Virus record (IMG/VR): IMGVR_UViG_3300042541_001098
Span: 1-22,209 of that record
DNA length: 22,209 nucleotides
Origin: a virus
Reading direction: 5' to 3' (one strand)
Shown: piece by piece, positions 1-12,357 of the stretch
Numbering within the stretch: position 1 is the stretch's first letter
Layout of the letters: each line of letters starts with the position of its first letter
Notes under the pieces: generated by a model
The model's database searches: none
The model's input: only the letters and a program-made list of their open reading frames with translations
What the model was told of the DNA's origin: nothing
Translations under genes and position numbers: made by a program

Positions 1-374
1 ACTTCTGCGATTCTCATATCAACCGCAATATCAGAAGATAATAAATCTTGTCCTTTAATGCCACGTATAACCTGTGGCATGTAATTTAAAAATAACAAAT
101 AAGTTTTCAACACAGCATAATCATCTTTGGCAACTTTAAAGAATAACATTCTAGTTGCGACCTCTACTCCGAACACATTGTATATGACGATAAGGTGGTT
201 TAGAACCAACCTTTCACGCATCTCATCATACCTGCGATACCTCTGAAATAATCTTTTGAGATAGTTAAACCTCTTCATGTCCTCCTTGAACTCACTCATT
301 ATGCAGTTAGGCTTATCATAAGATTTGGCTGCATATAACATTATATTATCATTATTTAAATTATCAAAGGACAT
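1..374 (-). CDS. Conserved T4-like marine phage protein of unknown function, partial (C-terminus beyond window)
   Basis: The reading frame starts with ATG at 374 (MSFDNLNNDNIMLYAAKSYD) and stays open for 124 codons to base 1, so the C-terminus is missing. Its ATG shares one base with the TAA stop of the upstream gene (TAATG), implying translational coupling. The visible protein has a short polar N-terminus with an AAKSYDKPNC segment, a basic stretch (KRFNYLKRLFQRYRRYD, about residues 37-53) and a helical part, RERLVLNHLIVIYNVFG (about 56-72), followed by a hydrophobic FLNYMPQVI segment. From memory this matches a small protein conserved in T4-like cyanophages with the same ERL(I/V)LNHLIV(L/I)xNVFG core; I believe it is a named domain of unknown function, but I am not sure of the number. 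No catalytic motif is visible. It is probably a late or virion-assembly gene, judged only from its position. Confidence 0.8.
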   Translation of the reverse strand, partial: MSFDNLNNDNIMLYAAKSYDKPNCIMSEFKEDMKRFNYLKRLFQRYRRYDEMRERLVLNHLIVIYNVFGVEVATRMLFFKVAKDDYAVLKTYLLFLNYMPQVIRGIKGQDLLSSDIAVDMRIAE

Positions 375-793
375 TAATCTTCTTCTGGTTCTTCGGTGAC
401 TAGTGCGTTAATTGTTTCTTCGTCACCTACTTGTGCATAAAACTCGTAATTACCTGCGTCTGATAGGTAGTACAACAAATACAAATAAACCATATTATCT
501 GGATTGTCAAACTGATGAATGTCAAAGGTAATTTCGTCACCTTCAACATCCAATTCATATAACGCAGGTATATCTAGTCCAAAGGAATTTAATACCTTAC
601 GAACTTTCTGTATACCATCTTGTGCAACTCTAAACCCATCAACGTTCAATTCTCTATACAACTGAGCGTTGATTTCGGATACTACAATAGGATTTTGAAC
701 CGATGATGAAGATTCACCAGTCGGTTCATGTGCTTCCTTGGCCTGATTAGGTTCTATAGAATAGAACTCTTTAAGGAATGATTTAAATGTCAT
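374..793 (-). CDS. Small acidic conserved phage protein with capsid-targeting-like N-terminus
   Basis: 139 aa. The N-terminus MTFKSFLKEFYS resembles the short targeting peptide of T4 internal head proteins: an aromatic-hydrophobic FL pair followed by xE, with L7-K8-E9 fitting the (L/I)xE cleavage rule of the T4 prohead protease, although the next residue is Phe rather than Ala, Ser or Gly. A low-complexity linker (about 15-35, Ser/Glu-rich) leads into a folded-looking domain (about 38-125) with EINAQLYRELN, VRKVLNSFGLDIPALYELD and a YLYLLYYLSDAGNYEFYAQV core. The tail is very acidic (TEEPEED). I recall similar proteins in T4-like cyanophages, always without known function. No Shine-Dalgarno sequence sits just before the ATG; instead a hairpin ends a few bases upstream. 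The next gene overlaps its stop by one base. Confidence 0.8.
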   Translation of the reverse strand: MTFKSFLKEFYSIEPNQAKEAHEPTGESSSSVQNPIVVSEINAQLYRELNVDGFRVAQDGIQKVRKVLNSFGLDIPALYELDVEGDEITFDIHQFDNPDNMVYLYLLYYLSDAGNYEFYAQVGDEETINALVTEEPEED

Positions 794-1188: not shown

Positions 1189-1196
1189 TATTTATG
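1189..1196 (-). promoter_or_regulatory. T4-type late promoter box (CATAAATA)
   Basis: The minus strand reads ACATAAATATAAC about 25 bases before the ATG of the 112-aa gene. It differs by one base from the T4 late promoter consensus TATAAATA and matches the CATAAATA box found upstream of the 797-aa gene in this window. It overlaps the stop codon of the preceding 578-aa gene. T4-type late promoters need only this -10-like element. Confidence 0.55.
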
Positions 1197-2928
1197 TGTT
1201 GTCAACTTTTTGAATCTGTGAATCCAAAACTGGTTCTGATTCGAATTTATCAGGTGCAGACTTCTTCTTCTTGGCAGAATTCACCGCATCTTTAATAATA
1301 TCTGTCTTACGTGATTCGACTAATGTAGACTCTTTCATTGACTTAGTACCTACACTTTTAACTTGTTTTGCACCGGCAGCTTTCATTGCTTTACGTGCCA
1401 AATCTCTGACCTTAGACTGTGCTGTGTGAACTGCACCAGATTTATCGGTAACTGTATCTGTTTTAGATTTAGACTTTTGCCAACCAGTGTCTCCCATCAT
1501 GCCTTCAATTAAAGATTCGTCTTGTTCAACGCTGTCACCCATGTAACGGCCTTGTTCGTAACCTCGACTGTTCGGGTCTTTCTTTGGTTCAGGTGTAGAT
1601 GGTTTGGCAGGATATCTTTTGGCAGCAGCCTTTTTGATTCCAGTTTCCAATTTGGACTTTTTGGCCATTGATGCTGAATCGGTGTTGTTTCTGATACTGT
1701 CATACTTCTTGTGACCAGCTTTCATGTAATTACCCAATGCATTAGGCGACAATTCATCCAACTGTTCGACTTGTTCTCTTTTAACACCACCAGCATCGAG
1801 CATGTCAAAGCGATCCCGAATGCCTGAAATACCCGGCTTAATACGTTTAGCCGCATCTTTAAGCGCAGGTGATGGATTTGGAATGTGCTTCATTGTTGTT
1901 TTAGACTGATGACTTTCTTCTTCAATCTCAACTTCTTCTTTAACAGGTTCAGGTTTCTTTGGTTGTAAAACTTCTCGGCCACGTTGTTCTGATGCTTCAC
2001 GCTTTGCTTTAATTCGGTCTAAAGCTTTTTGTATTCTTACTGCAACAGAAGATGCTTCTGTGATTGGTTTAGCAACAGTGGTTTTGCCACCTTTCTTTAC
2101 CAGAGTTTCTTGTGCAGAAGATCCAATTGGGTCATCACCAATTTCTTTTGCTTCGTCAATCTCACTCATCATATAATTAGCAACTGTTGAAATGTAATCT
2201 TCAGCTAATGTGATTTTAGATTGTACCCACTCAGGAAGATTATCATTATCTTTTAACATGTCATGCACTCTTTGAGCATTGTTGATTACACTTTGTAATT
2301 GGCCACGAGCCATATCACCTTCATAATCATACTCAGTTTTTTCTTTTGCTTCAGAGACAGATTTCCAACCACCACCCATCTCTTTATATTTCTTCGAAGC
2401 CCAGCCATTGGCATAAGCAGATGGATAAACATCGAATTTAGATTTAGCCTGTGCCTTGGCTTGCGCCCATTTCTCAGGACTTGTTGGCACATTTTTTTCG
2501 TTTAAATTTTCCATATCTTCACTTATCTTTCCTTTTCCAAAGTTGGACACGTTAATTGGTTCACCCTTCCTCTCAGGATTAGGGTCATGTTTTCTTTTAG
2601 ATGCAACGGCCGATGCTCTTTCTTTTTTAGTTAAAGATGCTCGCTTCTCGTTAGACATACATTTTGGTTTAGGTTCACCAGGTTCTCTTGCACAAGGACC
2701 AATTGCTTCACCCTTACTGTTAATTCTTTTCCAACCACCTTCTGGATCAGTCTTACTAAACCACTTACGCAAATCTTCATTCATCTCATCTTCTGGTGAA
2801 GATTCTTTTACGCAAGAACCTGGAGAATATGGTTTTTTACCGGGTACACGTTTATAATTATCCCAACAAGGACCACTGTCTTCTTGCCGAATTGCTTTAA
2901 AAACTTTAGATGCTGGTTTAGCCATCAT
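1192..2928 (-). CDS. Mosaic Lys/Glu-rich phage protein built from marine-phage modules (head-associated, inferred)
   Basis: 578 aa with no enzyme motif but several recognisable modules. Residues 10-42 (KAIRQEDSGPCWDNYKRVPG, two Cys) and 52-128 (KWFSKTDPEGGWKRI, GPCAREPGEPKPKC, RKHDPNPERKGEPI) look like Cys-containing repeats known from phages and some large DNA viruses. Residues 150-190 (KFDVYPSAYANGWASKKYKE) resemble the domain I recall as DUF5872. Residues 200-256 hold NLPEWVQSKITLAEDYIST, frequent in cyanophage structural proteins. Residues 342-381 (TTMKHIPNPSPALKDAAKRI) and 383-404 (EQVEQLDELSPNALGNYM) are further shared modules. Possible (L/I)xE protease sites occur at LDE (390-392), LIE (473-475) and LVE (535-537). 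The ATG overlaps the stop of the 361-aa gene as ATGA, so the two are coupled. It begins with two Met codons; either may be used. A prohead core or internal protein is the best guess. Confidence 0.8.
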   Translation of the reverse strand: MMAKPASKVFKAIRQEDSGPCWDNYKRVPGKKPYSPGSCVKESSPEDEMNEDLRKWFSKTDPEGGWKRINSKGEAIGPCAREPGEPKPKCMSNEKRASLTKKERASAVASKRKHDPNPERKGEPINVSNFGKGKISEDMENLNEKNVPTSPEKWAQAKAQAKSKFDVYPSAYANGWASKKYKEMGGGWKSVSEAKEKTEYDYEGDMARGQLQSVINNAQRVHDMLKDNDNLPEWVQSKITLAEDYISTVANYMMSEIDEAKEIGDDPIGSSAQETLVKKGGKTTVAKPITEASSVAVRIQKALDRIKAKREASEQRGREVLQPKKPEPVKEEVEIEEESHQSKTTMKHIPNPSPALKDAAKRIKPGISGIRDRFDMLDAGGVKREQVEQLDELSPNALGNYMKAGHKKYDSIRNNTDSASMAKKSKLETGIKKAAAKRYPAKPSTPEPKKDPNSRGYEQGRYMGDSVEQDESLIEGMMGDTGWQKSKSKTDTVTDKSGAVHTAQSKVRDLARKAMKAAGAKQVKSVGTKSMKESTLVESRKTDIIKDAVNSAKKKKSAPDKFESEPVLDSQIQKVDNT

Positions 2929-4010
2929 TCACTTTTCTTGGATGCTGAATATGCTGACATACTCATAACTTTTCTAGCTGCAACAGCTGAAGTTTGAGCA
3001 CGTTTCTTTGCTGCATCTTTATCGTGTGGTTTATCTGAAGGTTTTACATTCTTATCGTATGCATCTTCTTCAGTAATTTCAAATTGTTCTTTTGCTAATC
3101 TTTGAGCAGCACCAGCAATACCAGCAGTTCTGTTGTTTGCTTTAGTTTGATGTTTAGCAATTTCTGAAGATACACGTTTCTCACCTTTGGTGCCACCTTT
3201 AATTGGAGACTTTTCACCACGGCGGTAACCCATTTGATGTGCCATCAAAGCAGTATCTTTTGATCCAGCCATTTGTGCGTGTGAACGCATGTCTTTAGAT
3301 GCTTTTGTAACATAAGAACCTAAAGTGGATTTGCTTAGTTCGTCAAGTTGTTGGAATTCTTCCGACATAACAAACTCAACCAAATCTTCCAACAAATAAT
3401 CATCCAAAGTTAATTCAGAATCTTCTTCATTAACTGGTTTTTTCTTCTTTTCAGACTCAATAGATTTTAATTCTTTTTCTTTTGGTCCTTTTAGTACATC
3501 AAAGGCACTTGCTTCAGGCTTAGATGCACCATATGAACGGCCTTGTACTTTAGTTGATGGTAAATCTGCCATCTTAACTTCATCGATTGATTCAACTTCT
3601 TCTTTAATGCCTGCTTTTTTCATTAAAGCTCCAGCACGTGTCGATTGAGCTGCGTGATATTTTTTTGCAGAATCTAGAGCATTAATTTTTGCTGTTTTTT
3701 CTTTTGGTACAGGAAGTACGATATTAGAACTTCTTACTGTGTTCATTTTATTAGATGCGTCCGAAGCAGCATCCGCATGAGCTTTTTTAATAGCAGGTAA
3801 TTGACCTTTACCAGTCAACTCATCAATTTGTTCAACTTCTTCTTTCTTCATTCCTTTTTTAGCACGAAGCTTTTTGAAGTCATCAGCAGTCAATTTATCT
3901 TTTTCTGGCTCATGTACATCCAACTTTTGTTGGTTTGGATGCAAAGCTTCACCCATAATTTTTGCAACTGCTGCTGCAACTGATTGGTTAATTTTATCTT
4001 TAAATTCCAT
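2925..4010 (-). CDS. Lys/Glu-rich phage protein with repeated EVE(Q/S)(I/L)DE modules, probable prohead-associated protein
   Basis: 361 aa, highly charged, Ala-rich and predicted to be largely helical or disordered. Residues 1-50 (MEFKDKINQSVAAAVAKIMG, then LHPNQQKLDVHEPEKDKLTA) are a conserved-looking head module. The motif recurs as EEVEQIDEL (57-65), EEVESIDEV (137-145) and FQQLDEL (219-225), the last followed by SKSTLGSYVTKASKD, a module common in T4-like marine phages. Each motif contains I/L-D-E, which agrees with the (L/I)xE rule of the T4 gp21 prohead protease. An acidic patch sits at 195-218, and the C-terminus is basic and Ser/Ala-rich. The start at 4010 follows AGGA at a suitable distance. 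It lies between a small basic protein gene and the 578-aa gene, with which it overlaps. No reaction can be assigned; a scaffold, core or packaged protein is inferred. Confidence 0.8.
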   Translation of the reverse strand: MEFKDKINQSVAAAVAKIMGEALHPNQQKLDVHEPEKDKLTADDFKKLRAKKGMKKEEVEQIDELTGKGQLPAIKKAHADAASDASNKMNTVRSSNIVLPVPKEKTAKINALDSAKKYHAAQSTRAGALMKKAGIKEEVESIDEVKMADLPSTKVQGRSYGASKPEASAFDVLKGPKEKELKSIESEKKKKPVNEEDSELTLDDYLLEDLVEFVMSEEFQQLDELSKSTLGSYVTKASKDMRSHAQMAGSKDTALMAHQMGYRRGEKSPIKGGTKGEKRVSSEIAKHQTKANNRTAGIAGAAQRLAKEQFEITEEDAYDKNVKPSDKPHDKDAAKKRAQTSAVAARKVMSMSAYSASKKSE

Positions 4011-4034: not shown

Positions 4035-4325
4035 TTAACAATTCCATTTGCGTAGCGCTAATGCTTTGCGTGTTGGTTCGCCATTTGGCTTCTTCATCGG
4101 TCCATCCACACCACCCATCCTTGCACAGAATGATTTGCGTCTGTTTGCTGCCTTTGAACCGGCTTTTAATTTTGATGGTGGAGTTGTAACTGCCATCGAT
4201 AGTTTAGAACCTGGATTTTCTGCACGATAAGAAGCAATGCCTTTGCGGTTTAAACCACCTTCAGGATTCTTTCCTTCTTTTCTCTGCCAAGCTGCAGATT
4301 CTATAAATTGTTTAAGTGTTTTCAT
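4035..4325 (-). CDS. Small basic phage protein with internal-protein-like N-terminus
   Basis: 96 aa, strongly basic. The first residues, MKTLKQFIESAAW, resemble the capsid-targeting peptide of T4 internal proteins, which I recall as MKTYQEFIAEA; the register MKT-x3-FI is the same, although the (L/I)xE cleavage triplet is not exact (FIES). The rest contains AWQRKEGKNPEGGLNRKGIA (12-31), SKLKAGSKAANRRKSFCARM (51-70) and a final RKALALRKWNC. These belong to a small domain frequent in cyanophages and other phages; I believe it is DUF6321 but cannot verify the number. Two Cys and the many Arg/Lys suggest nucleic-acid contact. Its ATG overlaps the TGA of the 797-aa gene (ATGA), so the two are co-translated. 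A packaged DNA-binding protein is a reasonable inference. Confidence 0.8.
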   Translation of the reverse strand: MKTLKQFIESAAWQRKEGKNPEGGLNRKGIASYRAENPGSKLSMAVTTPPSKLKAGSKAANRRKSFCARMGGVDGPMKKPNGEPTRKALALRKWNC

Positions 4326-6715
4326 GCACCAATCGCCTTGTTAGATTTAAATGATAACAAAGAAATACCTTTTTTCTTCAACTCATCTTCTTTTTGAGCA
4401 CCAATAGAAGCACCGGTTTCATCACCTTGCATCTCTACAACCTGTGATGCTTTACCAGTCCTTTTTTTAATCTTTTCACCCATGTCACGCCCAATGCTTT
4501 CACCAGACGCAGCCATGGATAATCCAGGTTCTATGCCTTTGTCGATGGACTCTTTGATTTTCTCGGCTTGGCGTTCCCTGATTTTTGAGAGCGTGAGTTT
4601 TTTGGTGGAATTGGTTTCGCAGCCACAGTCTTCGTTGATTTTACCACAGGTGGCACAACGGCCACTGGAACTTCCACTGGAGGTGTTTCGACCACTGGCA
4701 CGACTGACTCCACCACTACCACCGAAGGCTTCAGTAAAGCTGGTTCTTGTACCGATTGTTTGCGACTCAATAGTCCTTTGAAAAATCTCATCATTTTTAT
4801 TCTCCTTTAATTTGACGACATAACCTTTACCCTGTTGCACCACTTCACCATCTTTGGTGTGTGCTTCTTTTGCTGCATTTCGGCGCAACATAAACATTCT
4901 AGGATTTCCATTCTTATCAGTAACATATTTATCATTTGATTCGAATTCTTTACCAACCAACTTAACACCAGACACATCTTGAATTAATTTCCATGCATCG
5001 CCGTGTTTGTTATTGGCCATGTGCGATTTAAACTCTTTCTTTTGTTCTGGTGTGGCTTTCTGATGGAACTTCATAACTTCCATCATACCGATATTACCAG
5101 TATATGCTGCCTCTTGGATTTTCTTCATTGACGAACCAGTTGTTGGTACACTGACCTCACCTGGTTTCTCTTTTGGCACTTCAACCAACTTACCATTGAC
5201 TGTATGGTGTGTAACTTTGCCTTGTTTACCATAACGACCAAAACCATAGTATGATAGACCAAGTTTGTGTGCTTGGTCAGCTGCGGCACCTTGGCCATCG
5301 GCATGTGCGGACAACTCTGCCTGTTTTGGTGGTACTGCAAACCTGTTCTTGCGTTCCATCTCAGAAGCAATCCACAACTCAGCAGGTTCACTCTTAGGTG
5401 GCGCCTGTGTGAATTCACGGACGTTCTTAAAGATATCCATCAACTCCATTTTCTTTTGCTTTACGACTTCGGGGTCTGCCGAACGTAAGTCTTCCGAATT
5501 GTCAAACTCAATGTAGTTTGTACCAAACAACTTGGCATATTCTGTGCGTGAGTTCTGTACCGAATCCCACTTCTCTTTACGTATTGTTTCGGGTACGGCA
5601 CGACCACCACGTTGGCCACGTTCAATGTTTCTCTGTGCAGAAATTTCATCACGTGTATTAACCAGAAGCATTTTGGTATCATAACCAAGTTCTTCTAGTC
5701 TTGCTTTAATCTTCTTAGTTTTCTCAACATCATCACCAGTGCCGTTGATAATCAAACCATTACGACCTAACAATGCCAAACGTTGGCGCAAATCTGTAAT
5801 GGTTTTTGCACGACCACGAACAAAGTTACGTTTATCTTCTTCAGCAGAAGGCATCTTCTTATCAAGGCCTTGTTTGTCCATCATAAACTCTAATGCTCTG
5901 TCCGAATTGATTTCTGTTAAACCATGACCTGCAAGTGTATTGTCAAGCACATAATCTTTACCAGAACCTGGACCACCTGCTAAGAATACTGCCTTGAAAA
6001 TGGATGCATCATGTACACCTTCACTCAGTAGTATCTCAAATGAATCATCAACAGATTCAACGAACAAAGATTCAAATAATTCGTCTGCTGATTCTTTCAT
6101 ATTGCCACCGATATATTTGTCTAGTAGTTGTTTTAATTTTGCAGGCTTTGTGGCTTTTGGATACAAATCTTTAATCATATTTTTACGACCAGCGTCATCG
6201 GCCTTTGTGTACATTGAACGTATTTGACTGCCTGAATAAACTTCTTGGCCATTTACTTTGAAGATGTGTTTTTTCGTTACATAAACATATCCATGTCCAC
6301 CTTTTGGATCAAATGATTTACACTCTTTGATTGATTTGAATGGTTGATAGTATGCTGGTGAACCATCTTTTTTGGTATAGTTCACAGGATCTCTTTCACT
6401 ACGAACAAGAATCAGAATGTCTTTCTTAGGATCGTAACGTGATAGAATTTCAGTTGGATTAACTGGTTGTGAGACCTGAACAAAGTTATCGTTAACGCCT
6501 GCTTGTTGCGCTAAGAATTGTTTGTCTTTGAATGGGATTGGTCGATTCTTGGTGTCGTTGCTGGCTGCAACATAGAAATCGGCAGATGAGAATGCACGTT
6601 TAGCCTGTTCATAACTACTCATATGACCAGCGTGAAATGGTTGGAAACCACCGCCATAAACGACAATAACCTTGGACTGGCCTTTGGCCTCTTGTATAAA
6701 CCGACTAAATTTCAT
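4322..6715 (-). CDS. Multidomain nucleotidyltransferase plus zeta-toxin-like P-loop kinase, candidate packaged polyprotein
   Basis: 797 aa. Residues 1-10 (MKFSRFIQEA) resemble a T4 capsid-targeting peptide with an IQE/A cleavage site. Residues 14-205 are a cytidylyltransferase/NMNAT-type domain: GGGFQPFHAGH (21-31, with the HxGH motif) and YSGSQIRS (160-167, equivalent to the ISSTxIR motif). Residues 240-435 are a P-loop kinase: Walker A GGPGSGKD (247-254), D272 in NSDRALE, LIINGTGDD (321-329), and RNIERGQRGGRAVPE (362-376), as in zeta-toxin-like kinases. Residues 470-512 hold a small module with LGLSYYGFGRYG. The C-terminus has a Gly/Ser linker, C687xxC690 with C697xC699 (possible zinc knuckle), and a final KEDELKKKGISLLSFK. 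Cyanophages carry relatives annotated as cytidylyltransferase; the substrates are unknown. Possible gp21-type cuts fall at 9/10, 215/216, 232/233 and 535/536, mostly between domains. The ATG follows GGCGGAG, and a late promoter box lies 31 bases upstream. Confidence 0.9.
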   Translation of the reverse strand: MKFSRFIQEAKGQSKVIVVYGGGFQPFHAGHMSSYEQAKRAFSSADFYVAASNDTKNRPIPFKDKQFLAQQAGVNDNFVQVSQPVNPTEILSRYDPKKDILILVRSERDPVNYTKKDGSPAYYQPFKSIKECKSFDPKGGHGYVYVTKKHIFKVNGQEVYSGSQIRSMYTKADDAGRKNMIKDLYPKATKPAKLKQLLDKYIGGNMKESADELFESLFVESVDDSFEILLSEGVHDASIFKAVFLAGGPGSGKDYVLDNTLAGHGLTEINSDRALEFMMDKQGLDKKMPSAEEDKRNFVRGRAKTITDLRQRLALLGRNGLIINGTGDDVEKTKKIKARLEELGYDTKMLLVNTRDEISAQRNIERGQRGGRAVPETIRKEKWDSVQNSRTEYAKLFGTNYIEFDNSEDLRSADPEVVKQKKMELMDIFKNVREFTQAPPKSEPAELWIASEMERKNRFAVPPKQAELSAHADGQGAAADQAHKLGLSYYGFGRYGKQGKVTHHTVNGKLVEVPKEKPGEVSVPTTGSSMKKIQEAAYTGNIGMMEVMKFHQKATPEQKKEFKSHMANNKHGDAWKLIQDVSGVKLVGKEFESNDKYVTDKNGNPRMFMLRRNAAKEAHTKDGEVVQQGKGYVVKLKENKNDEIFQRTIESQTIGTRTSFTEAFGGSGGVSRASGRNTSSGSSSGRCATCGKINEDCGCETNSTKKLTLSKIRERQAEKIKESIDKGIEPGLSMAASGESIGRDMGEKIKKRTGKASQVVEMQGDETGASIGAQKEDELKKKGISLLSFKSNKAIGA
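4531..4794 (-). CDS. Candidate nested gene in the +1 frame of the 797-aa gene
   Basis: 87 codons entirely inside the larger gene (opposite its residues about 641-728). The start is two consecutive ATG codons preceded by TTAAAGGAGA, with GGAG seven bases before the first ATG, among the best ribosome binding sites in the window. The predicted protein has a short amphipathic start (MMRFFKGLLSRKQ), a Pro/Val-rich middle (VVPVVETPPVEVPVAVVPPV) and a Lys/Ser/Pro-rich basic end (KPRKSKSPSTKA). It has no relative I recognise. Against it: the host frame here encodes a Gly/Ser-rich linker, and shifting such simple sequence gives a Pro/Val-rich reading by chance; the purine-rich SD is also part of codons for LKENK. 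It may be an overprinted gene or coincidence. Confidence 0.3.
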   Translation of the reverse strand: MMRFFKGLLSRKQSVQEPALLKPSVVVVESVVPVVETPPVEVPVAVVPPVVKSTKTVAAKPIPPKNSRSQKSGNAKPRKSKSPSTKA

Positions 6716-6738: not shown

Positions 6739-7203
6739 TTATATTCTATTTATGTAATCACGAATTTCACCAACCCAATCAGAACATGCACCAAAAGCAT
6801 TAAGAGATATCGTTTTCTTCGTTGGCCAGACATTCTCTGGCATCACCAATACTGTCAATTGGTTCACTGGTTCTTTACCAGGATATGCCCAAACATAACC
6901 CCAATTGGTCATCGTGTAGTCATCCACACTGTGCCAGAAGCAATGCAGTTTGTTTTTTAGACAATAACTGAATGCTTCTTTATTTTTGCAGTGAATCCAT
7001 AGTGTTTGTTTACGTACCATCAAATACTCAGGATCCACCAGATATTGTGGATTGTCGTGGCCAAAATATAAAACATCATCGACACACCATAAGTCCACTT
7101 CTACTGAAAATCCATCTTCAAGAGCTAAATCAATATAATCTGGACTATTTTCTAAATGTGGTTTCGGTCCATTAGTATTACCACGGTGTGCAATTAGTAT
7201 CAT
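6739..7203 (-). CDS. Short glycerophosphodiester phosphodiesterase-like protein
   Basis: 154 aa, shorter than the usual family length of about 240. The N-terminal half keeps the catalytic signature: AHRGN with H6 and R7, ENS (18-20), the metal-binding pair E35 and D37 in VEVDLW, GHD (48-50) with H49, and IHCKN (70-74) with the usual Lys. The second half (WHSVDDYTMTNWGYVWAYPG, 90-109; VMPENVW, 120-126) looks like a compact version seen, as far as I recall, in surface polysaccharide clusters. The family cleaves glycerophosphodiesters to an alcohol and glycerol-3-phosphate; here the substrate could be a phosphodiester on a glycan, or the fold may have been reused. It is cytoplasmic: no signal peptide. 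Its ATG overlaps the stop of the methyltransferase gene (ATGA), making it the last gene of the glycan cassette. The late promoter for the 797-aa gene is inside its last codons. Confidence 0.75.
   Translation of the reverse strand: MILIAHRGNTNGPKPHLENSPDYIDLALEDGFSVEVDLWCVDDVLYFGHDNPQYLVDPEYLMVRKQTLWIHCKNKEAFSYCLKNKLHCFWHSVDDYTMTNWGYVWAYPGKEPVNQLTVLVMPENVWPTKKTISLNAFGACSDWVGEIRDYINRI
6747..6754 (-). promoter_or_regulatory. T4-type late promoter box (CATAAATA)
   Basis: The minus strand reads ACATAAATAGAATATAATATT, 31 bases upstream of the 797-aa gene start. It is one base from the T4 late consensus TATAAATA and identical over eight bases to the box before the 112-aa gene. It lies in the last codons of the phosphodiesterase gene, so it would start a separate late transcript for the head-associated block. 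Confidence 0.6.
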
Positions 7204-7895
7204 ACGTTTATCACAACTCCCATATTTTCACCTGCAGGATAATAAAGTTTAATCTCAACCTTTTTACCAATCTTGTTGAATAAGTGGTCATGTACTGATT
7301 CTGCGAAACTGTGGTCATACACATCATGGAATGCCAACACATACTTTTCACCAAGCAATGGCAAAAATGCATCAATGTCTTTAATCATTTGTTCAGGGAA
7401 ATGTCCTGCGTCAATGAATACAAAGTCTAGTGGCTCAGAGAAATGTCTACGTACACAAGTCTCTGTATCATCAGGACTCCAACCAATCTCTGGAAAGAGT
7501 GTGTTCTCTAAACCAAACTGTTCAATCAAATACTTAACTGATTTGTAACCATCGGCCTTATCATACACTTCACGTTGCATATCTCTGTAGTGACCTGGAT
7601 TACCTTTAGATTCTTCAATGTAGGCATCCATTGTTACGACCTTACCACCAGTTTCCAAGAAACCCAAACCTAATGCTGTTGAACTGATACCAAATGCTGT
7701 TGCACATTCATAACCACGTTGAAGGTTATGTTCTACGATTAGATTTTTTAGAAAGTTAAATTCTTCTTCTTTGATGGAGTATGGATAAGGATGATTACTC
7801 ATCTTAAGATTACCTCTGCCGTTATCGGAATAGGTTACAGGTCCATCTTTTAATTCTATGATATCTTTAAACGTATTACTTGTCCATTTCAACAT
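7200..7895 (-). CDS. Class I SAM-dependent methyltransferase (Methyltransf_24 type)
   Basis: 231 aa. The Rossmann-type core is readable: motif I around GYECATAFGISSTALGLG (61-78), the acidic end of beta-2 in VVTMDAY (86-92), LDFVFIDAGH (156-165) with the DAGH signature typical of this family, and LAFHDVYDH (187-195). These are the features of cytoplasmic methyltransferases often found with glycosyltransferases and thought to methylate sugars or other small groups. No membrane segment or signal peptide is seen. The gene starts 20 bases inside the preceding glycosyltransferase-like gene and its stop overlaps the phosphodiesterase start, so it is co-translated in the cassette. O-methylation of a phage- or host-linked glycan is likely but unproven; the acceptor cannot be named. 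Confidence 0.85.
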   Translation of the reverse strand: MLKWTSNTFKDIIELKDGPVTYSDNGRGNLKMSNHPYPYSIKEEEFNFLKNLIVEHNLQRGYECATAFGISSTALGLGFLETGGKVVTMDAYIEESKGNPGHYRDMQREVYDKADGYKSVKYLIEQFGLENTLFPEIGWSPDDTETCVRRHFSEPLDFVFIDAGHFPEQMIKDIDAFLPLLGEKYVLAFHDVYDHSFAESVHDHLFNKIGKKVEIKLYYPAGENMGVVINV

Positions 7896-8592
7896 AAGGT
7901 CCTTTTGGTGTGTGCATGAGAGTTCTATTTAGATTTATCTCCTGCCAGTTGAATCCAAGGTTCTTAATGTGTTGCGTTGACATCACATGAGGACATAATA
8001 GATCAGTTTGTTTGTAGACAGAACCAATTACAGTAATCATTTTGGTGAAGAACATCATAGAAATAAAGTTACCAACTTGCATTACATCACCGGTGCCTTG
8101 ACCTAAATGGTTTCTGGCTGCAACAGTGTAGAATACATTTGGATCAAAATCAGGCAGGTCATCGTGTATCAACATATCAGGACGCATACGAATTACCAAA
8201 TCATATGATGATTGTAGTCGTGCAACGTGTGTTTCAAGTGCAGAGAAACCTTGGTGCATCTTGTAGAACATCGATAGAATATTCTTTGGTCTGTGTGCAT
8301 AGTTCGTAAAGTATTCACCACAAGATTCAAAGTGTTTATTGAAATCTTCCCAATACTCTTTCACATAGTGTACTGGTTTGTATGTGTCTAATATTTCATC
8401 ATCAACAATTTGTGGTGCGCCTTCATAGATACCTGTTTTATTTTGTTTATCACCAGGAATCCAATACGCCTCATCATCCCATGTGTGTATGTAGATATCG
8501 GGATTGTATCGGTCAATAATCTTTTCTTTGAAATTAGGAAACACCTCTCTCCAACATCGGAGGTGTCCTGTTAATACAACTGCAACTTTCAT
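7876..8592 (-). CDS. Putative glycosyltransferase (GT-A-like, LTGHLR family)
   Basis: 238 aa. It opens with MKVAVVLTGHLRCW, then PDIYIHTWDD (31-40), YDLVIRMRPDM (130-140) and a later segment with DLLCPHVMS. The pairing of a Gly-His-Arg N-terminus, an HTWDD turn and a VIRMRPD strand is typical of a family of small bacterial and viral glycosyltransferase-like proteins in polysaccharide loci; the D in RPD probably corresponds to the nucleotide-sugar/metal site. The fold assignment is from pattern recognition. The gene overlaps the fusion gene upstream by ATGA and the methyltransferase gene downstream by 20 bases. The donor and acceptor sugars cannot be inferred. Confidence 0.7.
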   Translation of the reverse strand: MKVAVVLTGHLRCWREVFPNFKEKIIDRYNPDIYIHTWDDEAYWIPGDKQNKTGIYEGAPQIVDDEILDTYKPVHYVKEYWEDFNKHFESCGEYFTNYAHRPKNILSMFYKMHQGFSALETHVARLQSSYDLVIRMRPDMLIHDDLPDFDPNVFYTVAARNHLGQGTGDVMQVGNFISMMFFTKMITVIGSVYKQTDLLCPHVMSTQHIKNLGFNWQEINLNRTLMHTPKGPYVEMDK

Positions 8593-9959
8593 TTATGATT
8601 CTCCAAGAAGTAATTTAAATCTTCTGGAGTACCAATGCCCCACATCTTAGGAATATCTTTGACACGAATCTTCTTACCATCACCAATGGCTTCATTGAAT
8701 ACTGGACACACATAGAATTCTCCGTTGGTACGGATATTCTTTTCAATCATTTGTTCAGCATACTTAACATAATCAGAACCTTTTTTCCAATAGTAGATAC
8801 CGACTGTTGCGATATTTGAAATTGGATTCTTCTCTGCTACTTCTGTGACGAAACCGTCATCTCCGAGTTTTGCAAATGACCACTTTGGATGGGTTGCCCT
8901 AAAGGTAACGATACCACCATCAACGCCGTCAGCAGTAAAAGCATAGAGACATTCATTTGAGTTCCACTCCACATATTGGTCTGAGTTCGCCATCAGTAAT
9001 GGCTCATCGTTGTTAATAAGTTCTTTGGCCAACAGAGTTGTACATGCTGCGCCTTCTGTCAAACTATTAACCTGTACGATATCACAACCAGGTGAGATTA
9101 AGTTTAATAATTGTTTGAGGTTGTATTTATCATAGTGTTCCTTTTGTACAATGTAGATGAAGTGTGCATCAACGTTTAGGTTTTCTGCAACAACTTGAAT
9201 CATTGGTTTACCATTAACCTCAATCAATGGTTTAGGGAATGTGTAACCAGCTGCTGCGAATCTACTACCAGCGCCAGCCATAGGAATTAGTACGTTCATT
9301 TTTTTATCTCTCCATGGTATCATTTTCTTAATTACACCGTTAAGTGTATCGATTGCTTCATCAATTTTATCCATCGTCAAGTCATATGAATCTTTAACTG
9401 GAACTAAGTGAGCACCAGAATCTAGTGCGCCTTGTCTGCCAATATGACTGTCTTCAATGATAACTGTATTCTTAGGTAGTACATCTAATGCTGTCATACA
9501 TTGCCAGTACATCTCAGGATATGGTTTGGTTCTCTTAACATCCTCATTAGAGACATAGTAATCAACATACTCCATGACACCAACAGACAATAGTGCCAAC
9601 TTAACTGTCTCACGTATAGAATTACTTGCAATAGCAATCTTAATTCCATTACTACTCAACTTGGCAAACATCTGCCTAAGTTTGTTATTCTTTGGAAATT
9701 GTCTGATGAGGTTGAATGTGGCAACTTGTTTATCTTGCCAAATCTGATTGAAGAATTTACGGTCAAGACCTTTCTTCTCAGACAACATCTCAAGTTTCTT
9801 TGTGGTGTTTAGACCATCATACAAACTCAAGTGTTCTTCACGTGTAATCACATACTCACTACCAACTTTACGTAGAGCATCATTCAATGCTTCATAATGT
9901 AGTTCACGTGATTCAATCAATACACCGTCAAGGTCAAAAATTACTAATTTATTTTGCAT
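8589..9959 (-). CDS. HAD phosphatase fused to a sugar-type nucleotidyltransferase
   Basis: 456 aa, two enzymes in one chain. Residues 1-212 form a HAD hydrolase of the beta-phosphoglucomutase/phosphatase type: DLDGV (9-13) with nucleophile D9 and acid D11, ASNS (111-114) for motif II, K145 in RTKPYPE, and IIEDS (167-171) for motif IV. Residues 221-456 form a nucleotidyltransferase of the glucose-1-phosphate thymidylyltransferase superfamily: IPMAGAGSRF (225-234), FPKPLIEVNGKPM (241-253), and MANSDQYVEW with the metal-binding Asp. Together they would dephosphorylate and activate a sugar phosphate or related compound. The cap region (15-90) is the small helical type. A second start at residue 221 has its own ribosome binding site. 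The gene overlaps both neighbours (11 bases and ATGA). The substrate is unknown; sugar phosphates are likeliest, and phospho-alcohols are possible given the phosphodiesterase in the cassette. Confidence 0.9.
   Translation of the reverse strand: MQNKLVIFDLDGVLIESRELHYEALNDALRKVGSEYVITREEHLSLYDGLNTTKKLEMLSEKKGLDRKFFNQIWQDKQVATFNLIRQFPKNNKLRQMFAKLSSNGIKIAIASNSIRETVKLALLSVGVMEYVDYYVSNEDVKRTKPYPEMYWQCMTALDVLPKNTVIIEDSHIGRQGALDSGAHLVPVKDSYDLTMDKIDEAIDTLNGVIKKMIPWRDKKMNVLIPMAGAGSRFAAAGYTFPKPLIEVNGKPMIQVVAENLNVDAHFIYIVQKEHYDKYNLKQLLNLISPGCDIVQVNSLTEGAACTTLLAKELINNDEPLLMANSDQYVEWNSNECLYAFTADGVDGGIVTFRATHPKWSFAKLGDDGFVTEVAEKNPISNIATVGIYYWKKGSDYVKYAEQMIEKNIRTNGEFYVCPVFNEAIGDGKKIRVKDIPKMWGIGTPEDLNYFLENHK
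9297..9313 (-). promoter_or_regulatory. Internal ribosome binding site and start for the nucleotidyltransferase half
   Basis: Within the fusion gene the minus strand reads GGAGAGATAAAAAATG, where the ATG (9299-9297) is Met221, exactly the first residue of the nucleotidyltransferase domain (MNVLIPMAG). The GGAGAG is a strong Shine-Dalgarno sequence at a usable distance. It may give a separate nucleotidyltransferase polypeptide in addition to the fusion, or be the remnant of two once-separate genes. Confidence 0.45.
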
Positions 9960-10572
9960 CTCTATGCCACTTATTATGTTTCACAATACTGTTACCATTA
10001 CATTTCATCACATATCTATGACGCACACGGAGAGACCACTCAACATCTTCGGCTTGGCCGTGTGTGAGTTCTTCGTTGAATGGATTATCTAGTGCAACTT
10101 GTTTCTTCACTAGAAAGTAACCACCAGATATGTACATATAGTTAGCACGTGACCAATCATCATGTCTCAGTGCAGTGTAACGTGGGAATACAGGATCATC
10201 CCATGTCACCCAATCTGTAAAGTGTCTCTTGTCATTAATGAGTAGTTGTTTGTTAGAACAGATGTGCCATTCTTCACCAAACTCCAAGAAGTTCTTGTAC
10301 CAATCTTTATCAAACACATAGTAGTCGTGCATCAATACGATGTTATCATACTTTGCTGCCTGAACAATGGTGTTCTTCTTGCGTGTTACCCAACTAGGTT
10401 GTTGAGTCTCATCAAAATAGATATGCGTTACGTCAACCATATCTTCTTTCTTCTCACCACCAACAATTAAAATCTCATACTCAGGTATTTGTAGTGATCT
10501 GATAGAGGAGATTACTTCGTTGATTTGTGGTTGATTAGAGTAGTCTGTTGTTATACCAAAAGTTATTTTCAT
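9949..10572 (-). CDS. Family 2-like glycosyltransferase
   Basis: 207 aa, shorter than typical family 2 enzymes (about 250-300). The N-terminal nucleotide-binding half has MKITFGITTDYSNQ, strand EYEILIVGGE (31-40), WVTRKKNTIVQAAKYDNIVL (61-80) and MHDYYVF (81-87), in which HDYY takes the place of the DxD metal motif. The acceptor half has YMYISGGYFLVKK (145-157) and HGQAEDVEWSLRVR (171-184), the ED signature that provides the catalytic base. It is predicted to be cytoplasmic and soluble. The start at 10572 overlaps the stop of the family 4 gene (ATGA), and the stop lies 11 bases inside the HAD fusion gene. It would transfer a nucleotide-activated sugar, possibly the one made by that fusion, though this link is inference. 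Confidence 0.85.
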   Translation of the reverse strand: MKITFGITTDYSNQPQINEVISSIRSLQIPEYEILIVGGEKKEDMVDVTHIYFDETQQPSWVTRKKNTIVQAAKYDNIVLMHDYYVFDKDWYKNFLEFGEEWHICSNKQLLINDKRHFTDWVTWDDPVFPRYTALRHDDWSRANYMYISGGYFLVKKQVALDNPFNEELTHGQAEDVEWSLRVRHRYVMKCNGNSIVKHNKWHRDAK

Positions 10573-11528
10573 ATTAATTTCAAAATATCATTTACTGTGT
10601 TTTTAATCAAATGTGCGTTCATCACGTATTCATGTGCATCATCAAGTTTGGACTCTGGCACACCTCTGAAATCAATCATGTACTCACGTAGAGCAGAATC
10701 ATTATCATATGTGAATCCAAAATCACTCAGCACCTTGGCACCTGCAATATTGCGTGATGCCCATGCTGTTCTATTTAACATTGATTCCAGTAGAACCAAT
10801 CCAAATCCTTCTGAGTGTGAGTGCATGATATAAAGGTCAGCATCTCTAATCGCAGACATAACATCATTGCGGTCATCAACCATCATCGCTTTCACATGTT
10901 TGGAATTTTGCGGCATGATGTTGTGACGATTATCATAACCAGTCAGAACAAGTGTAACATCATCACGACCAACACCATTGAATGTGGCAATCAATTCGTG
11001 AAATGCTTTGTTAGGCCAGAAACCACCACACGACAAGAACATATATGGTGTTGTGATTCCATACTTCTCACGGAATCCAGGTGTACCAGAAGAAATCTCT
11101 GCATCGATGCCATGTGATACCCGAACTGCCTTGTCACGATGACCAAGTTTGAATGCTGATTCCCAATCTTCTTTGGTTGAACAACCAATGTACTTAACGT
11201 GTTTCATTGCATGTTGATATGTGGCACTCTCAGATGGTTTAATCAACATGAACAACATTGGTGATGGAATTCTTTGTGAGTTCATCAATGCAACATCTTG
11301 TACACCAACGTCACCGCCATGCACAACAATCAAATCAAAGACTTCTGAACCCATAATTTGAAAGTCACTTGTTACTTTGACTCCGTTCAAATCACCTTTG
11401 TGTTCGCCTGCAAGTACAGTTACATCATGTCCTCTACGGAATGTTTCTTCTGCCATATCACGTACATAATTTTCAGAACCACCGGGATATGGAGCATATC
11501 GGTGGACAACATATAAAATTTTAGCCAT
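10569..11528 (-). CDS. Family 4-like (GT-B) glycosyltransferase
   Basis: 319 aa from the chosen start. MAKILYVVHRYAPYPGGSE is a classic GT-B N-terminus with the GGxE loop. The second Rossmann half has VSHGID, FLSCGGFWPNKAFHELI (a variant of the GR-x-x-x-K-N motif) and, near the C-terminus, HSEGFGLVLLESM, the EX7E signature of family 4 retaining transferases (about residues 240 and 248). An upstream ATG at 11582 would add 18 residues, but they read in a shifted frame of the upstream gene, do not resemble the family and lack a ribosome binding site; the start at 11528 overlaps the preceding stop by eight bases, as elsewhere in this cassette. The donor is a nucleotide sugar of unknown type. Confidence 0.9.
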   Translation of the reverse strand: MAKILYVVHRYAPYPGGSENYVRDMAEETFRRGHDVTVLAGEHKGDLNGVKVTSDFQIMGSEVFDLIVVHGGDVGVQDVALMNSQRIPSPMLFMLIKPSESATYQHAMKHVKYIGCSTKEDWESAFKLGHRDKAVRVSHGIDAEISSGTPGFREKYGITTPYMFLSCGGFWPNKAFHELIATFNGVGRDDVTLVLTGYDNRHNIMPQNSKHVKAMMVDDRNDVMSAIRDADLYIMHSHSEGFGLVLLESMLNRTAWASRNIAGAKVLSDFGFTYDNDSALREYMIDFRGVPESKLDDAHEYVMNAHLIKNTVNDILKLI

Positions 11529-12357
11529 ATTTTGCTTCAATAATCTTTCGCCATGCAGGCACTCTATCATACTGGTGAACAATCACATACTCTTTGTTCA
11601 TTGATGTTACTACTTTATCTATCTCCATGTGTGGAGATGGTTCCAACAAGAATGGTCTGAACTGGTCTATCTTACTTGGGTCTGCAGTTGTACCAAGTTG
11701 ACATGCCCACCCATCTTCCGATTTAGTATAACGACAAGTTGACTTGTATGGTTCTTGTGAAATCAGGAAGTTGAATGTAGATTGGTCACAAATTGGAATT
11801 GGTTTGTTTAGACATGATGAAAAGATATTCATGCACAAGTCACGCATTGCATCACCACGACCAGCCAATACACCAACGTTGTAGATTGGATTATCTTTGA
11901 ATCTATCATAGATGAATTGACCATAAGTCTCCAACAAGTTTTGGTTACCCCATGGTTCATCTTTGTATAACATACTTTCAGAGGAGAACATCAATAGTTG
12001 ACGTTGACCCATATGTTTCTCAATGTGTTTGAATGGATTGCTTTGGAAGATAACATCTTTAACGTCAGTCGTAATGACATAACGATACTCATTCTGTGAC
12101 AAGAAATTATAGATGTGTAGAAATCTCTCAACGTGTACCATAATATTGGACTGATATACAAGATTGCCTTGTTCATCCCGTTTGAATCCGATAACTTTGA
12201 ATCCTGTATCAGTGACTCTATCTACAGTCTCTTTATCAGCATTCATCATAATCAAAACTTTATCACCAGTAAAACCTGACTGATTGATAGAGTTGACCCA
12301 ATACTTAATTGTGTCCCATTTATATCCGGTGGAACATCCGATTATCAAATCTTTCAT
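11521..12357 (-). CDS. Putative GT-A glycosyltransferase, first gene of the glycan cassette
   Basis: 278 aa. It starts MKDLIIGCSTGYKWDTIKYW, has strand KVLIMMNADKETVD (33-46), and ITTDVKDVIFQSNPF (95-109), where DVKD is in the position of the metal-binding DxD of GT-A enzymes. A later PICDQSTFNFLI segment resembles the D-Q(S/T)xFN(F/Y) motif common to several glycosyltransferase families. HMEIDKVVTSMNKEYVIVHQYDR near the end (read as shorter pieces HMEIDKV and VIVHQYDR) gives the typical final H-x-Y. The assignment to a numbered family is uncertain. A good ribosome binding site (GAGGAGATATATTATG) and a sigma70-like promoter directly upstream mark it as the head of the cassette. The next gene overlaps its stop by eight bases. 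Confidence 0.75.
   Translation of the reverse strand: MKDLIIGCSTGYKWDTIKYWVNSINQSGFTGDKVLIMMNADKETVDRVTDTGFKVIGFKRDEQGNLVYQSNIMVHVERFLHIYNFLSQNEYRYVITTDVKDVIFQSNPFKHIEKHMGQRQLLMFSSESMLYKDEPWGNQNLLETYGQFIYDRFKDNPIYNVGVLAGRGDAMRDLCMNIFSSCLNKPIPICDQSTFNFLISQEPYKSTCRYTKSEDGWACQLGTTADPSKIDQFRPFLLEPSPHMEIDKVVTSMNKEYVIVHQYDRVPAWRKIIEAKYG

What the first reader, a model, noticed from the sequence alone, without database searches (positions are those of the whole stretch)
4322..6715. Candidate virion-packaged polyprotein: nucleotidyltransferase plus zeta-toxin-like kinase with protease sites at domain boundaries
The sequence shows MKFSRFIQEA at the N-terminus, then an HxGH nucleotidyltransferase domain, a zeta-toxin-like kinase, a GFGRYG module and a Cys-rich end. 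Triplets fitting the T4 gp21 rule (L/I)xE followed by A, S or G lie at 9/10 (IQE/A), 215/216 (LFE/S), 232/233 (LSE/G) and 535/536 (IQE/A). The two middle ones fall in the linker between the nucleotidyltransferase and the kinase, and the last lies between the middle and C-terminal modules. From T4, head internal proteins are targeted by such N-termini, cleaved in the prohead and injected with DNA. I infer that this protein is packaged, cut into separate enzymes and delivered early in infection, perhaps to act on nucleotides, NAD-like compounds or UDP-sugars.
Basis: partly seen in the sequence, partly recalled or inferred. Interest (0 to 1): 0.75.

Follow-up and report, generated by a model that had tools for sequence, protein, structure and literature searches.

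The report
Phage-packaged multi-enzyme chain with cleavage sites
A T4-like aquatic phage appears to make one long protein in which several enzyme modules each sit behind a short head-targeting and cutting signal, so that they can be loaded into the virus head, cut apart and injected into the host; relatives of the first enzyme have already been found in purified virus particles.

Summary
The ORF is real (797 aa, minus strand, 6715..4322). All four cleavage triplets exist where stated; a fifth (722/723) was missed. Pfam confirms a cytidylyltransferase-like nucleotidyltransferase (NTase) and a zeta-toxin/AAA_33-type kinase. The reading is largely supported, with limits. Sites 9/10, 232/233 and 535/536 are conserved; 215/216 is not. 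46 of 51 homologues with an intact 5' end start MKFxxF(I/L/F), although the NTase behind the tag belongs to two subfamilies. The kinase, the DLRxWF module and DUF6321 occur both directly behind an N-terminal tag and internally, with the cut motif at the same junction (within a residue for DUF6321). So the chain looks like several targeting-signal-plus-cargo units joined head to tail. Six of 15 unnamed relatives' records, and two named phages, encode a gp21-type protease. Published virion proteomics found NTase homologues in S-SM1, S-SCSM1 and S-SZBM1; I read their N-termini, and all three carry the tag. Not shown: cleavage, injection, substrates, or the kinase in virions. Predicted products: NTase, kinase plus GFGRYG module, small modules. 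A tagged protein of the same phages (DUF6267) has an RNA-ligase-like predicted fold, so a virion-carried NAD/RNA-repair kit is possible but speculative.

The parts
4322..6715 (-). ORF of the candidate packaged polyprotein (797 aa plus stop)
   Evidence: homologues
6689..6715 (-). residues 1-9 MKFSRFIQE: capsid-targeting-like N-terminal peptide; predicted cut 9/10
   Evidence: 46 of 51 5'-complete homologues start MKFxxF(I/L/F); CTS rule from PMC9026906
6104..6676 (-). residues 14-204: HxGH nucleotidyltransferase, type A (GGGFQPFHAGH ... SGSQIR)
   Evidence: Pfam PF01467; PPAT/NadD fold, Z about 11.8
6020..6103 (-). linker 205-232 ending in FEILLSE, CTS-like, cut 232/233; also the non-conserved 215/216
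   Evidence: 28 of 28 at 232; kinase junction motif in 24 of 24 internal and 3 of 3 N-terminal contexts; pLDDT below 50
5351..6019 (-). residues 233-455: P-loop kinase (zeta-toxin / AAA_33 / PNK-PSTK-like)
   Evidence: Pfam PF06414, PF13671; invariant and nearly invariant residues; folds
5180..5278 (-). residues 480-512: GFGRYG module, also found behind the tag of S-SM1_190 as GYGRYADP
5111..5119 (-). residues 533-535 IQE, predicted cut 535/536
   Evidence: 18 of 19; 10 of 10 contexts of the AAYxGNIG module
4946..5110 (-). residues 536-590: AAYxGNIGMMEVMKFH module, predicted small helical domain
4802..4930 (-). residues 596-638: small LRxxAAKEAH...YVVKLKE module
4325..4801 (-). residues 639-797: tail predicted mostly disordered, CxxC...CxC stretch, fifth triplet IKE/S at 722/723 (4550-4558)
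4035..4325 (-). downstream gene overlapping by 4 bases: tag MKTLKQFIES then DUF6321; its cut motif reads FIE, not (L/I)xE
1192..2928 (-). 578-aa protein that shares the DLRxWF...PEGGWKRINSKGEAIGPC module with homologues of the polyprotein
2925..4010 (-). 361-aa protein with a (L/I)DE-headed LSxxxLGSY module
374..793 (-). 139-aa protein starting MTFKSFLKE, tag-like

Best explanation
This is a head-packaged cargo polyprotein of a T4-like phage. Its first nine residues act as a capsid targeting sequence (CTS) that brings the chain into the prohead core. The gp21-type prohead protease then cuts after (L/I)xE at 9/10, 232/233 and 535/536, and perhaps 722/723, each cut lying in a CTS-like or low-confidence linker before a module. 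This releases an NMNAT/PPAT-like nucleotidyltransferase, a PNK/PSTK/zeta-class kinase still joined to the GFGRYG module, and small modules, which stay in the head and enter the host with the DNA. Shown here: the sequence features, their conservation and the junction equivalence. Shown by others: NTase homologues in virions. Inferred: targeting, cutting and injection of this protein, and enzyme function. Most likely activity: the NTase makes a dinucleotide cofactor of the NAD type (about 0.45) and the kinase phosphorylates an RNA end or a nucleotide-like small molecule (about 0.35 for RNA).
For: Tag in 46 of 51 5'-complete homologues, in front of two NTase subfamilies. The cut motif [LIVMF]xE sits exactly before the kinase in 24 of 24 internal and 3 of 3 N-terminal distinct contexts, before DLRxWF in 19 of 19 and 4 of 4, before DUF6321 with a gap of 2-3 residues in 9 of 9 and 4 of 4, before AVTVxxTGD in 14 of 14 and AAYxGNIG in 10 of 10; that motif ends at 2.8% of positions in the 28 proteins. 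Breakpoints between differently built proteins: 91 of 458 lie near (L/I)xE[AGSDV] against 48.9, sd 6.6, for random places. gp21 family in 8 of 17 records; in six of these records the ORFs taken for gp22 hold several (L/I)xE sites and five of six taken for gp23 hold one near residues 52-71. Tagged starts in 36 of 1432 ORFs against 20 of 5571 internal Met. Virion detection of NTase homologues: S-SM1, S-SCSM1, S-SZBM1; tags MKKFSAFLNEA, MKSFLQFLKEA, MRFRQFIIEA.
Against: No cleavage product has been seen. No record near-identical to the window is shown to carry gp21: G011 (54 kb) has neither gp21 nor gp23 hits, and G004 (124 kb) lacks both too; of those searched, the closest with gp21 is G005, whose homologue is 57% identical. 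Site 215 is kept in 4 of 28; 268 is conserved inside the kinase. Most breakpoints lack the motif (367 of 458), and plain (L/I)xE is less enriched, 128 against 95.3, sd 8.5. With strict (L/I)xE at the same position, module starts YPSAYANGWA (0 of 9) and GDETTASIG (0 of 12; 5 of 12 one residue off) do not show it, and SIDKGIEPG only in 9 of 18. HTVC008M gp130 (NTase) begins MKTLKELLRKK: the tag spacing is not kept, its only triplet there being LKE/L at residue 6. Of the 46 tags, 19 are followed by A and 6 by S but 19 by Q and 2 by K. S-CREM2 and S-SCSM1 authors note possible carry-over from lysate. Many internal contexts are orthologous, so counts are not independent.
Confidence: 0.72

Rival explanations
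1. The protein is packaged and loses its N-terminal peptide, but the internal triplets are ordinary acidic linkers; the NTase and kinase stay joined as one bifunctional enzyme, in the domain order of NadR (NMN adenylyltransferase then ribosylnicotinamide kinase; order recalled).
For: NTase-kinase order; a NadR structure is among the Foldseek hits, aligned over 470 columns with low TM; 268 shows that (L/I)xE can be conserved for other reasons, and the triplet count is only modestly above shuffles.
Against: The 232/233 triplet is kept in 28 of 28 while the linker varies in length, and in Melnitz and HTVC008M the kinase is a separate gene whose own N-terminal peptide ends at that junction. The kinase's top-scoring folds are guanylate kinase, PSTK, PNK and adenylate kinase.
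Confidence: 0.17
2. It is not packaged: a cytoplasmic auxiliary enzyme of infection (NAD or nucleotide metabolism), and virion detection of homologues is lysate carry-over.
For: Authors of the S-CREM2 and S-SCSM1 studies raise carry-over; cyanophage NTase genes lie near replication genes; peptide numbers are low in two studies, 3 and 2.
Against: The tag is conserved across different NTases and on unrelated modules; neighbouring genes of the same cluster are also virion proteins in S-SCSM1 and S-SZBM1; the DUF6267 gene next to the S-SZBM1 NTase has no tag, and its number as inferred from gene order has no occurrence in that paper's main text.
Confidence: 0.08
3. The kinase is a true zeta-type toxin (UDP-sugar kinase) delivered to block host wall synthesis.
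For: Pfam Zeta_toxin, 43.1 bits against a cut-off of 22.3; zeta-like kinases are described in phage MuF and conjugative polyvalent proteins (PMC5512222, passages).
Against: AAA_33 also passes its cut-off, and in the PDB sequence search adenylate kinases (E 3e-6) rank above PezT and zeta (E 0.07, 0.3); structural matches to PSTK, PNK and guanylate kinase score Z 11-12 against 10.3 for zeta, a small difference.
Confidence: 0.12

Closest known systems
T4 internal head proteins (IPI-III, Alt) with capsid targeting sequence and gp21 cleavage
   Same: About 10 N-terminal residues; key residues three apart followed by (I/L)xE; gp21 family in relatives; head cargo meant for the host (PMC9026906 passages).
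   Different: Tag is one residue shorter; several tag-like junctions inside one chain; cargo are enzymes of other classes. Homology to the IPs was not tested.
Virion-associated NMNAT/cytidylyltransferase of T4-like cyanophages (S-SM1 T4-GC190, S-SCSM1 ORF91, S-SZBM1_140, S-CREM2 ORF154)
   Same: The first three are type-B NTases, the kind that replaces the window's NTase in many homologues, and carry the same tag. The S-CREM2 sequence was not read.
   Different: No kinase, shorter; the window's own NTase is a different subfamily (type A).
Polyvalent proteins (Iyer et al. 2017, PMC5512222)
   Same: Multi-domain, delivered with the DNA, processing proposed; zeta-like kinases reported among their domains (passages).
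   Different: Release there is proposed through peptidase domains within the chain; here Pfam showed no peptidase domain in the chain and the gp21-type protease would act in trans.
SPN3US / phiKZ-type head protein processing
   Same: Prohead protease cuts after a short motif ending in Glu, several cuts per propeptide (PMC10052503 passages).
   Different: Motif AxE in SPN3US; the cuts reported there remove propeptides and do not release several enzymes.

Membership tests
T4-type capsid targeting sequence (CTS) | short N-terminal peptide with spaced key residues and (I/L)xE | tested here: met
   MKFSRFIQE; 46 of 51 homologues; rule
T4-type capsid targeting sequence (CTS) | directs the protein into the prohead | not testable with these tools
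   only indirect: tagged homologues in virions
T4-type capsid targeting sequence (CTS) | removed by gp21-type protease | not testable with these tools
   protease present in 8 of 17 records, not in G011; window is a fragment
gp21 substrates | (L/I)xE before the cut, conserved at 9, 232 and 535 | tested here: met
   25 of 28, 28 of 28, 18 of 19
gp21 substrates | (L/I)xE at 215/216 conserved | tested here: not met
   4 of 28
HxGH nucleotidyltransferase superfamily | Pfam PF01467 above cut-off, (H/T)xGH, PPAT/NadD fold | tested here: met
NMN/NaMN adenylyltransferase (NadD/NadR equivalogs) | NCBIfam equivalog cut-off | tested here: not met
   TIGR00482 18 bits against 112; TIGR01526 14 against 341
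Zeta toxin (Pfam PF06414) | family score and Walker A | tested here: met
   43.1 bits, GGPGSGKD nearly invariant
Zeta toxin-antitoxin system | UDP-GlcNAc kinase activity and paired epsilon antitoxin | not tested
   no antitoxin search was made
Polyvalent proteins | several conflict-type domains in one virion-delivered chain | tested here: inconclusive
   multi-domain and module-shuffled; delivery not shown
Polyvalent proteins | peptidase domain in the chain | tested here: inconclusive
   none at E 0.1 in Pfam; whether every member has one was not checked

The most novel reading that the evidence does not exclude
Aquatic T4-like phages carry a virion-borne, pre-made enzyme kit encoded as concatenated CTS-cargo units: a PNK/PSTK-like kinase and an RNA-ligase-like DUF6267 protein to heal and seal cleaved host RNA, and an NMNAT-like enzyme to restore NAD, ready at time zero against RNA-cutting or NAD-depleting defences. 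Cargo genes evolve by fusing and shuffling tag-plus-module units, with the head protease as the common processing enzyme.
Probability: 0.2. Interest if true: 0.85.

Novelty: new variant of a known kind. Interest (0 to 1): 0.63.

Why it matters
Virion NMNAT/cytidylyltransferases of marine phages have been reported several times, with authors of two studies unsure whether they are cargo or carry-over. The tag offers a sequence reason for cargo and a simple rule for predicting other injected proteins. If the internal sites are cut, the head protease of a tailed phage processes delivered polyproteins, with modules exchangeable between genes; this can be tested with existing isolates and in T4.

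Tried and rejected
Site 215/216 as a general cut site: rejected, 4 of 28. Counting triplets as proof: too weak on its own (P 0.016). Conservation of (L/I)xE alone as proof: weakened by 268 inside the kinase. Exact T4 late promoter TATAAATA (recalled motif) in the window: 0 matches, 1.9 expected by chance, so nothing on timing. PADLOC: no hits for the four proteins given. PDB sequence search with DUF6267 (A2): best E 0.18, protein kinases, taken as chance. The tag-less NTase homologues (L046, L047, L049-L051): no Terminase_6N and no S78 protease in 5 of 5 records, and no S77 in the two tested; all may be fragments, so this shows nothing firm; primase, helicase and weak head PHROG hits mark G013 as a phage.

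Literature: five searches aimed at this idea listed 25 of 90, 15 of 74, 14 of 14, 10 of 28 and 10 of 33 papers; from titles and abstract starts I saw none that ties a capsid targeting sequence to cyanophage NMNAT or to cutting of a delivered polyprotein. I opened passages of some, not all, of the listed papers, and not the unlisted ones. One search found 0 papers naming DUF6267, DUF6321, DUF7207 or DUF5824. This covers only the held open-access library; supplements could not be opened, so peptide maps that could show or exclude cleavage were not seen.

Full report
Observation. The window is a 22,209-base virus record. The ORF at 4322..6715 is on the minus strand and encodes 797 aa. The motifs described are present. 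Pfam gives CTP_transf_like at 19-107 and Zeta_toxin at 241-388, both above cut-off. The (L/I)xE[AGS] triplets are at 9, 215, 232 and 535 as stated, plus one at 722; shuffled versions have 1.5 on average, P(>=5) = 0.016.

Homologues. A scan of viral contigs gave 56 loci, several near-identical. Of 51 with an intact 5' end, 46 start MKFxxF(I/L/F); five (L046, L047, L049, L050, L051) start MATIVVYGGGFQPFH and have no tag. The NTase behind the tag comes in two subfamilies, type A (GGGFQPFHAGH, as in the window) and type B (AFGRMNPxTxGH), while the kinase is shared. In an alignment of 28 distinct full-length sequences the motif at 232 is kept in 28, at 9 in 25 (L006, L007 and L009 read FQE), at 535 in 18 of the 19 with a residue there, and at 215 in 4. 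For that alignment I dropped five full-length sequences: L045 (broken chain) and the tag-less L046, L049, L050 and L051. Columns 268 (inside the kinase, 26) and 638 (end of a small module, 27) are also kept. Between L002 (same protein as the window) and L006 the NTase and kinase show 50 and 41 synonymous against 21 and 12 amino-acid changes, whereas the linker 205-229 shows 4 against 6.

Junction equivalence. Modules were found by short patterns in the loci and the residues before them read. Using [LIVMF]xE, which ends at 2.8% of positions in the 28 proteins, the motif lies exactly before the kinase in 24 of 24 distinct internal and 3 of 3 N-terminal contexts (for example Melnitz MKTFAELQE|GVYD and HTVC008M MIPFILKE|GLYD), before DLRxWF in 19 of 19 and 4 of 4 (for example MKSFLNLHE|DLRKWF), before DUF6321 with 2-3 residues between in 9 of 9 and 4 of 4, before AVTVxxTGD in 14 of 14, AAYxGNIG in 10 of 10 and LSxxxLGSY in 7 of 7 (internal only); before CWxGYK, allowing up to 4 residues between, in 15 of 17 N-terminal contexts. 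With the stricter [LI]xE the first scan gave 25 of 26 (kinase), 10 of 11 (AVTV), 8 of 8 (AAY), 8 of 12 (DLR) and 7 of 7 (LS) at the junction; but SIDKGIEPG 9 of 18, GDETTASIG 0 of 12 (5 of 12 one residue off), DUF6321 6 of 13 at two residues before and CWxGYK 3 of 12 at two before, YPSAYANGWA 0 of 9. Many contexts are orthologous, so these are not independent trials; the strong point is that unrelated modules meet the same motif both as first module after a tag and inside a chain. Several internal linkers look like the tag itself (FENFLSE|AVTV, FEELLTE|GVHD, FDEFINE|AVTV). A less guided test took starts of local similarity among 54 proteins: 91 of 458 lie near (L/I)xE[AGSDV] against 48.9 (sd 6.6) for random places in the same proteins, 128 against 95.3 (sd 8.5) for plain (L/I)xE, and 17 against 5.5 (sd 2.3) for the full tag-like pattern; most breakpoints therefore lack it.

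Protease. The gp21 family (Peptidase_S77) is in 8 of 17 records searched: 6 of 15 unnamed records and both named phages. In six of the eight I read the genes around gp21. The ORFs taken by gene order for gp22 hold several (L/I)xE sites in all six; those taken for gp23 (confirmed by PF07068 in G001) hold one near residues 52-71 in five, for example LTE|A at 55 in G001, and HTVC008M gp23 has none followed by A, G, S, T or V. The window and the near-identical record G011 are fragments without gp21 (for G011) and G011 has no gp23 hit. T4 rule: gp21 cuts after (L/I)xE; in the IPIII tag, residues 4 and 7 serve targeting, 8 and 10 processing (PMC9026906, passages). Here F3, F6, I7 and E9 have the same spacing one residue earlier.

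Virion evidence from the literature. S-SM1 virions contained the putative cytidylyltransferase T4-GC190 (PMC3037559, passages and section 26); the record marks SSM1_190 as that cluster and it begins MKKFSAFLNEAERSF, followed by a GYGRYADP module and a type-B NTase. S-SCSM1 virions contained the NMNAT-like ORF91 (PMC9602691, passages and section 13); the record's NMNAT, marked virion protein, begins MKSFLQFLKEA, and gp089, gp282, gp280 and gp279 around it are annotated virion proteins. S-SZBM1 virions contained the cytidylyltransferase (2 peptides) and a 457-aa protein (4 peptides) that I match by length to the next gene (PMC9146016, passages); the former begins MRFRQFIIEA. The DUF6267 gene beside it has no tag, and its inferred number has no occurrence in that paper's main text. 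S-CREM2 virions contained ORF154 cytidylyltransferase, 3 peptides (PMC10665884, passages); its N-terminus was not read. S-CBWM1 is known to me only as cited in those papers. In S-CREM1, 14 proteins were detected and the passages I saw name no NTase (PMC9964418, passages). The S-CREM2 and S-SCSM1 authors allow for carry-over. The type-B query matched 523 phage records, 459 of them named Synechococcus, Cyanophage or Prochlorococcus, and the Syn30 protein 530.

Census. With one tag pattern, 36 of 1432 ORFs in eleven sequences start with a tag (up to six start codons tried per ORF) against 20 of 5571 internal Met; the window and G011 overlap, and the window's own DUF6321 gene is not caught by the pattern. 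The recurring tagged genes are the NTase-kinase chain, the following DUF6321/CWxGYK gene and DUF6267. Of 88 distinct DUF6267 N-termini, 74 match the tag pattern; of the other 14, by eye, 12 still hold a (L/I)xE in the start and 2 do not.

Enzymes. The model of the 797-aa chain has low mean confidence (58.3) but ordered NTase and kinase. The NTase matches PPAT and NadD (Z about 11.8, 3.0-3.3 A), the kinase matches guanylate kinase, PSTK, PNK, UMP/CMP and adenylate kinases and zeta (Z 10-12), so these names are not separated. NCBIfam equivalogs for NadD, NadR and CoaD are far below cut-off. DUF6267 (model pLDDT 79.4) has weak Foldseek E-values, the best being DNA ligase I at 0.11; in the second look 49 of the 50 rows listed are RNA or DNA ligases, but only 14 reach Z 8 and the best is 8.6. 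K61, D63, G64, E376, G377 and K390 are invariant in 24 sequences, as expected for a ligase-type adenylation site (motifs recalled); ligase activity is inference.

Conclusion. The packaging reading is supported, and the polyprotein reading is the best explanation of the junction data but unproven. It is closest to T4 CTS cargo and to polyvalent proteins (PMC5512222, passages), differing by repeated tag-like junctions and a protease acting in trans.

Noticed in passing
L217:4901-6130 (same contig as L004, whose polyprotein is identical to the window's): DUF6267 protein with N-terminal tag MKFSEFITE and an RNA-ligase-like predicted fold; common in viral contigs (537 relatives in one scan).
   Followed up: partly
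window 1192-2928 and 2925-4010, minus strand: Two mosaic proteins with (L/I)DE-headed modules; (L/I)xE count above shuffles (10 against 4.1 and 7 against 3.3).
   Followed up: partly
window 4035-4325, minus strand: DUF6321 gene overlapping the polyprotein stop by 4 bases; its tag reads FIE/S, one residue shorter than relatives' FMxE/S.
   Followed up: partly
L046, L047, L049, L050, L051: Type-A NTase genes without tag, in possibly fragmentary records with no Terminase_6N or S78 hit (5 of 5) and no gp21 hit in the two tested.
   Followed up: partly
L072:2254-4590: Agrobacterium phage Atu_ph07 protein with the same kinase behind a different N-terminal part, junction EVTE|GVNDKH; its paper reports a virion-protein-rich cluster CDS 31-76 (PMC6102473, passages), membership of this gene not checked.
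   Followed up: partly
L301:8627-8836: S-SCSM1 gp279, a 69-aa annotated virion protein, ends with a tag-like FKEFLEYIE at its C-terminus.
   Followed up: no
window 6739-12357, minus strand: A HAD plus sugar-type nucleotidyltransferase fusion (8589-9959) among genes that look by eye like glycosyl- or methyl-transferases (not searched).
   Followed up: no
window 18460-22209, minus strand: Long open frame with repeated WTHIAxxRxGxTxxxYVNG-like segments by eye, running off the record end.
   Followed up: no
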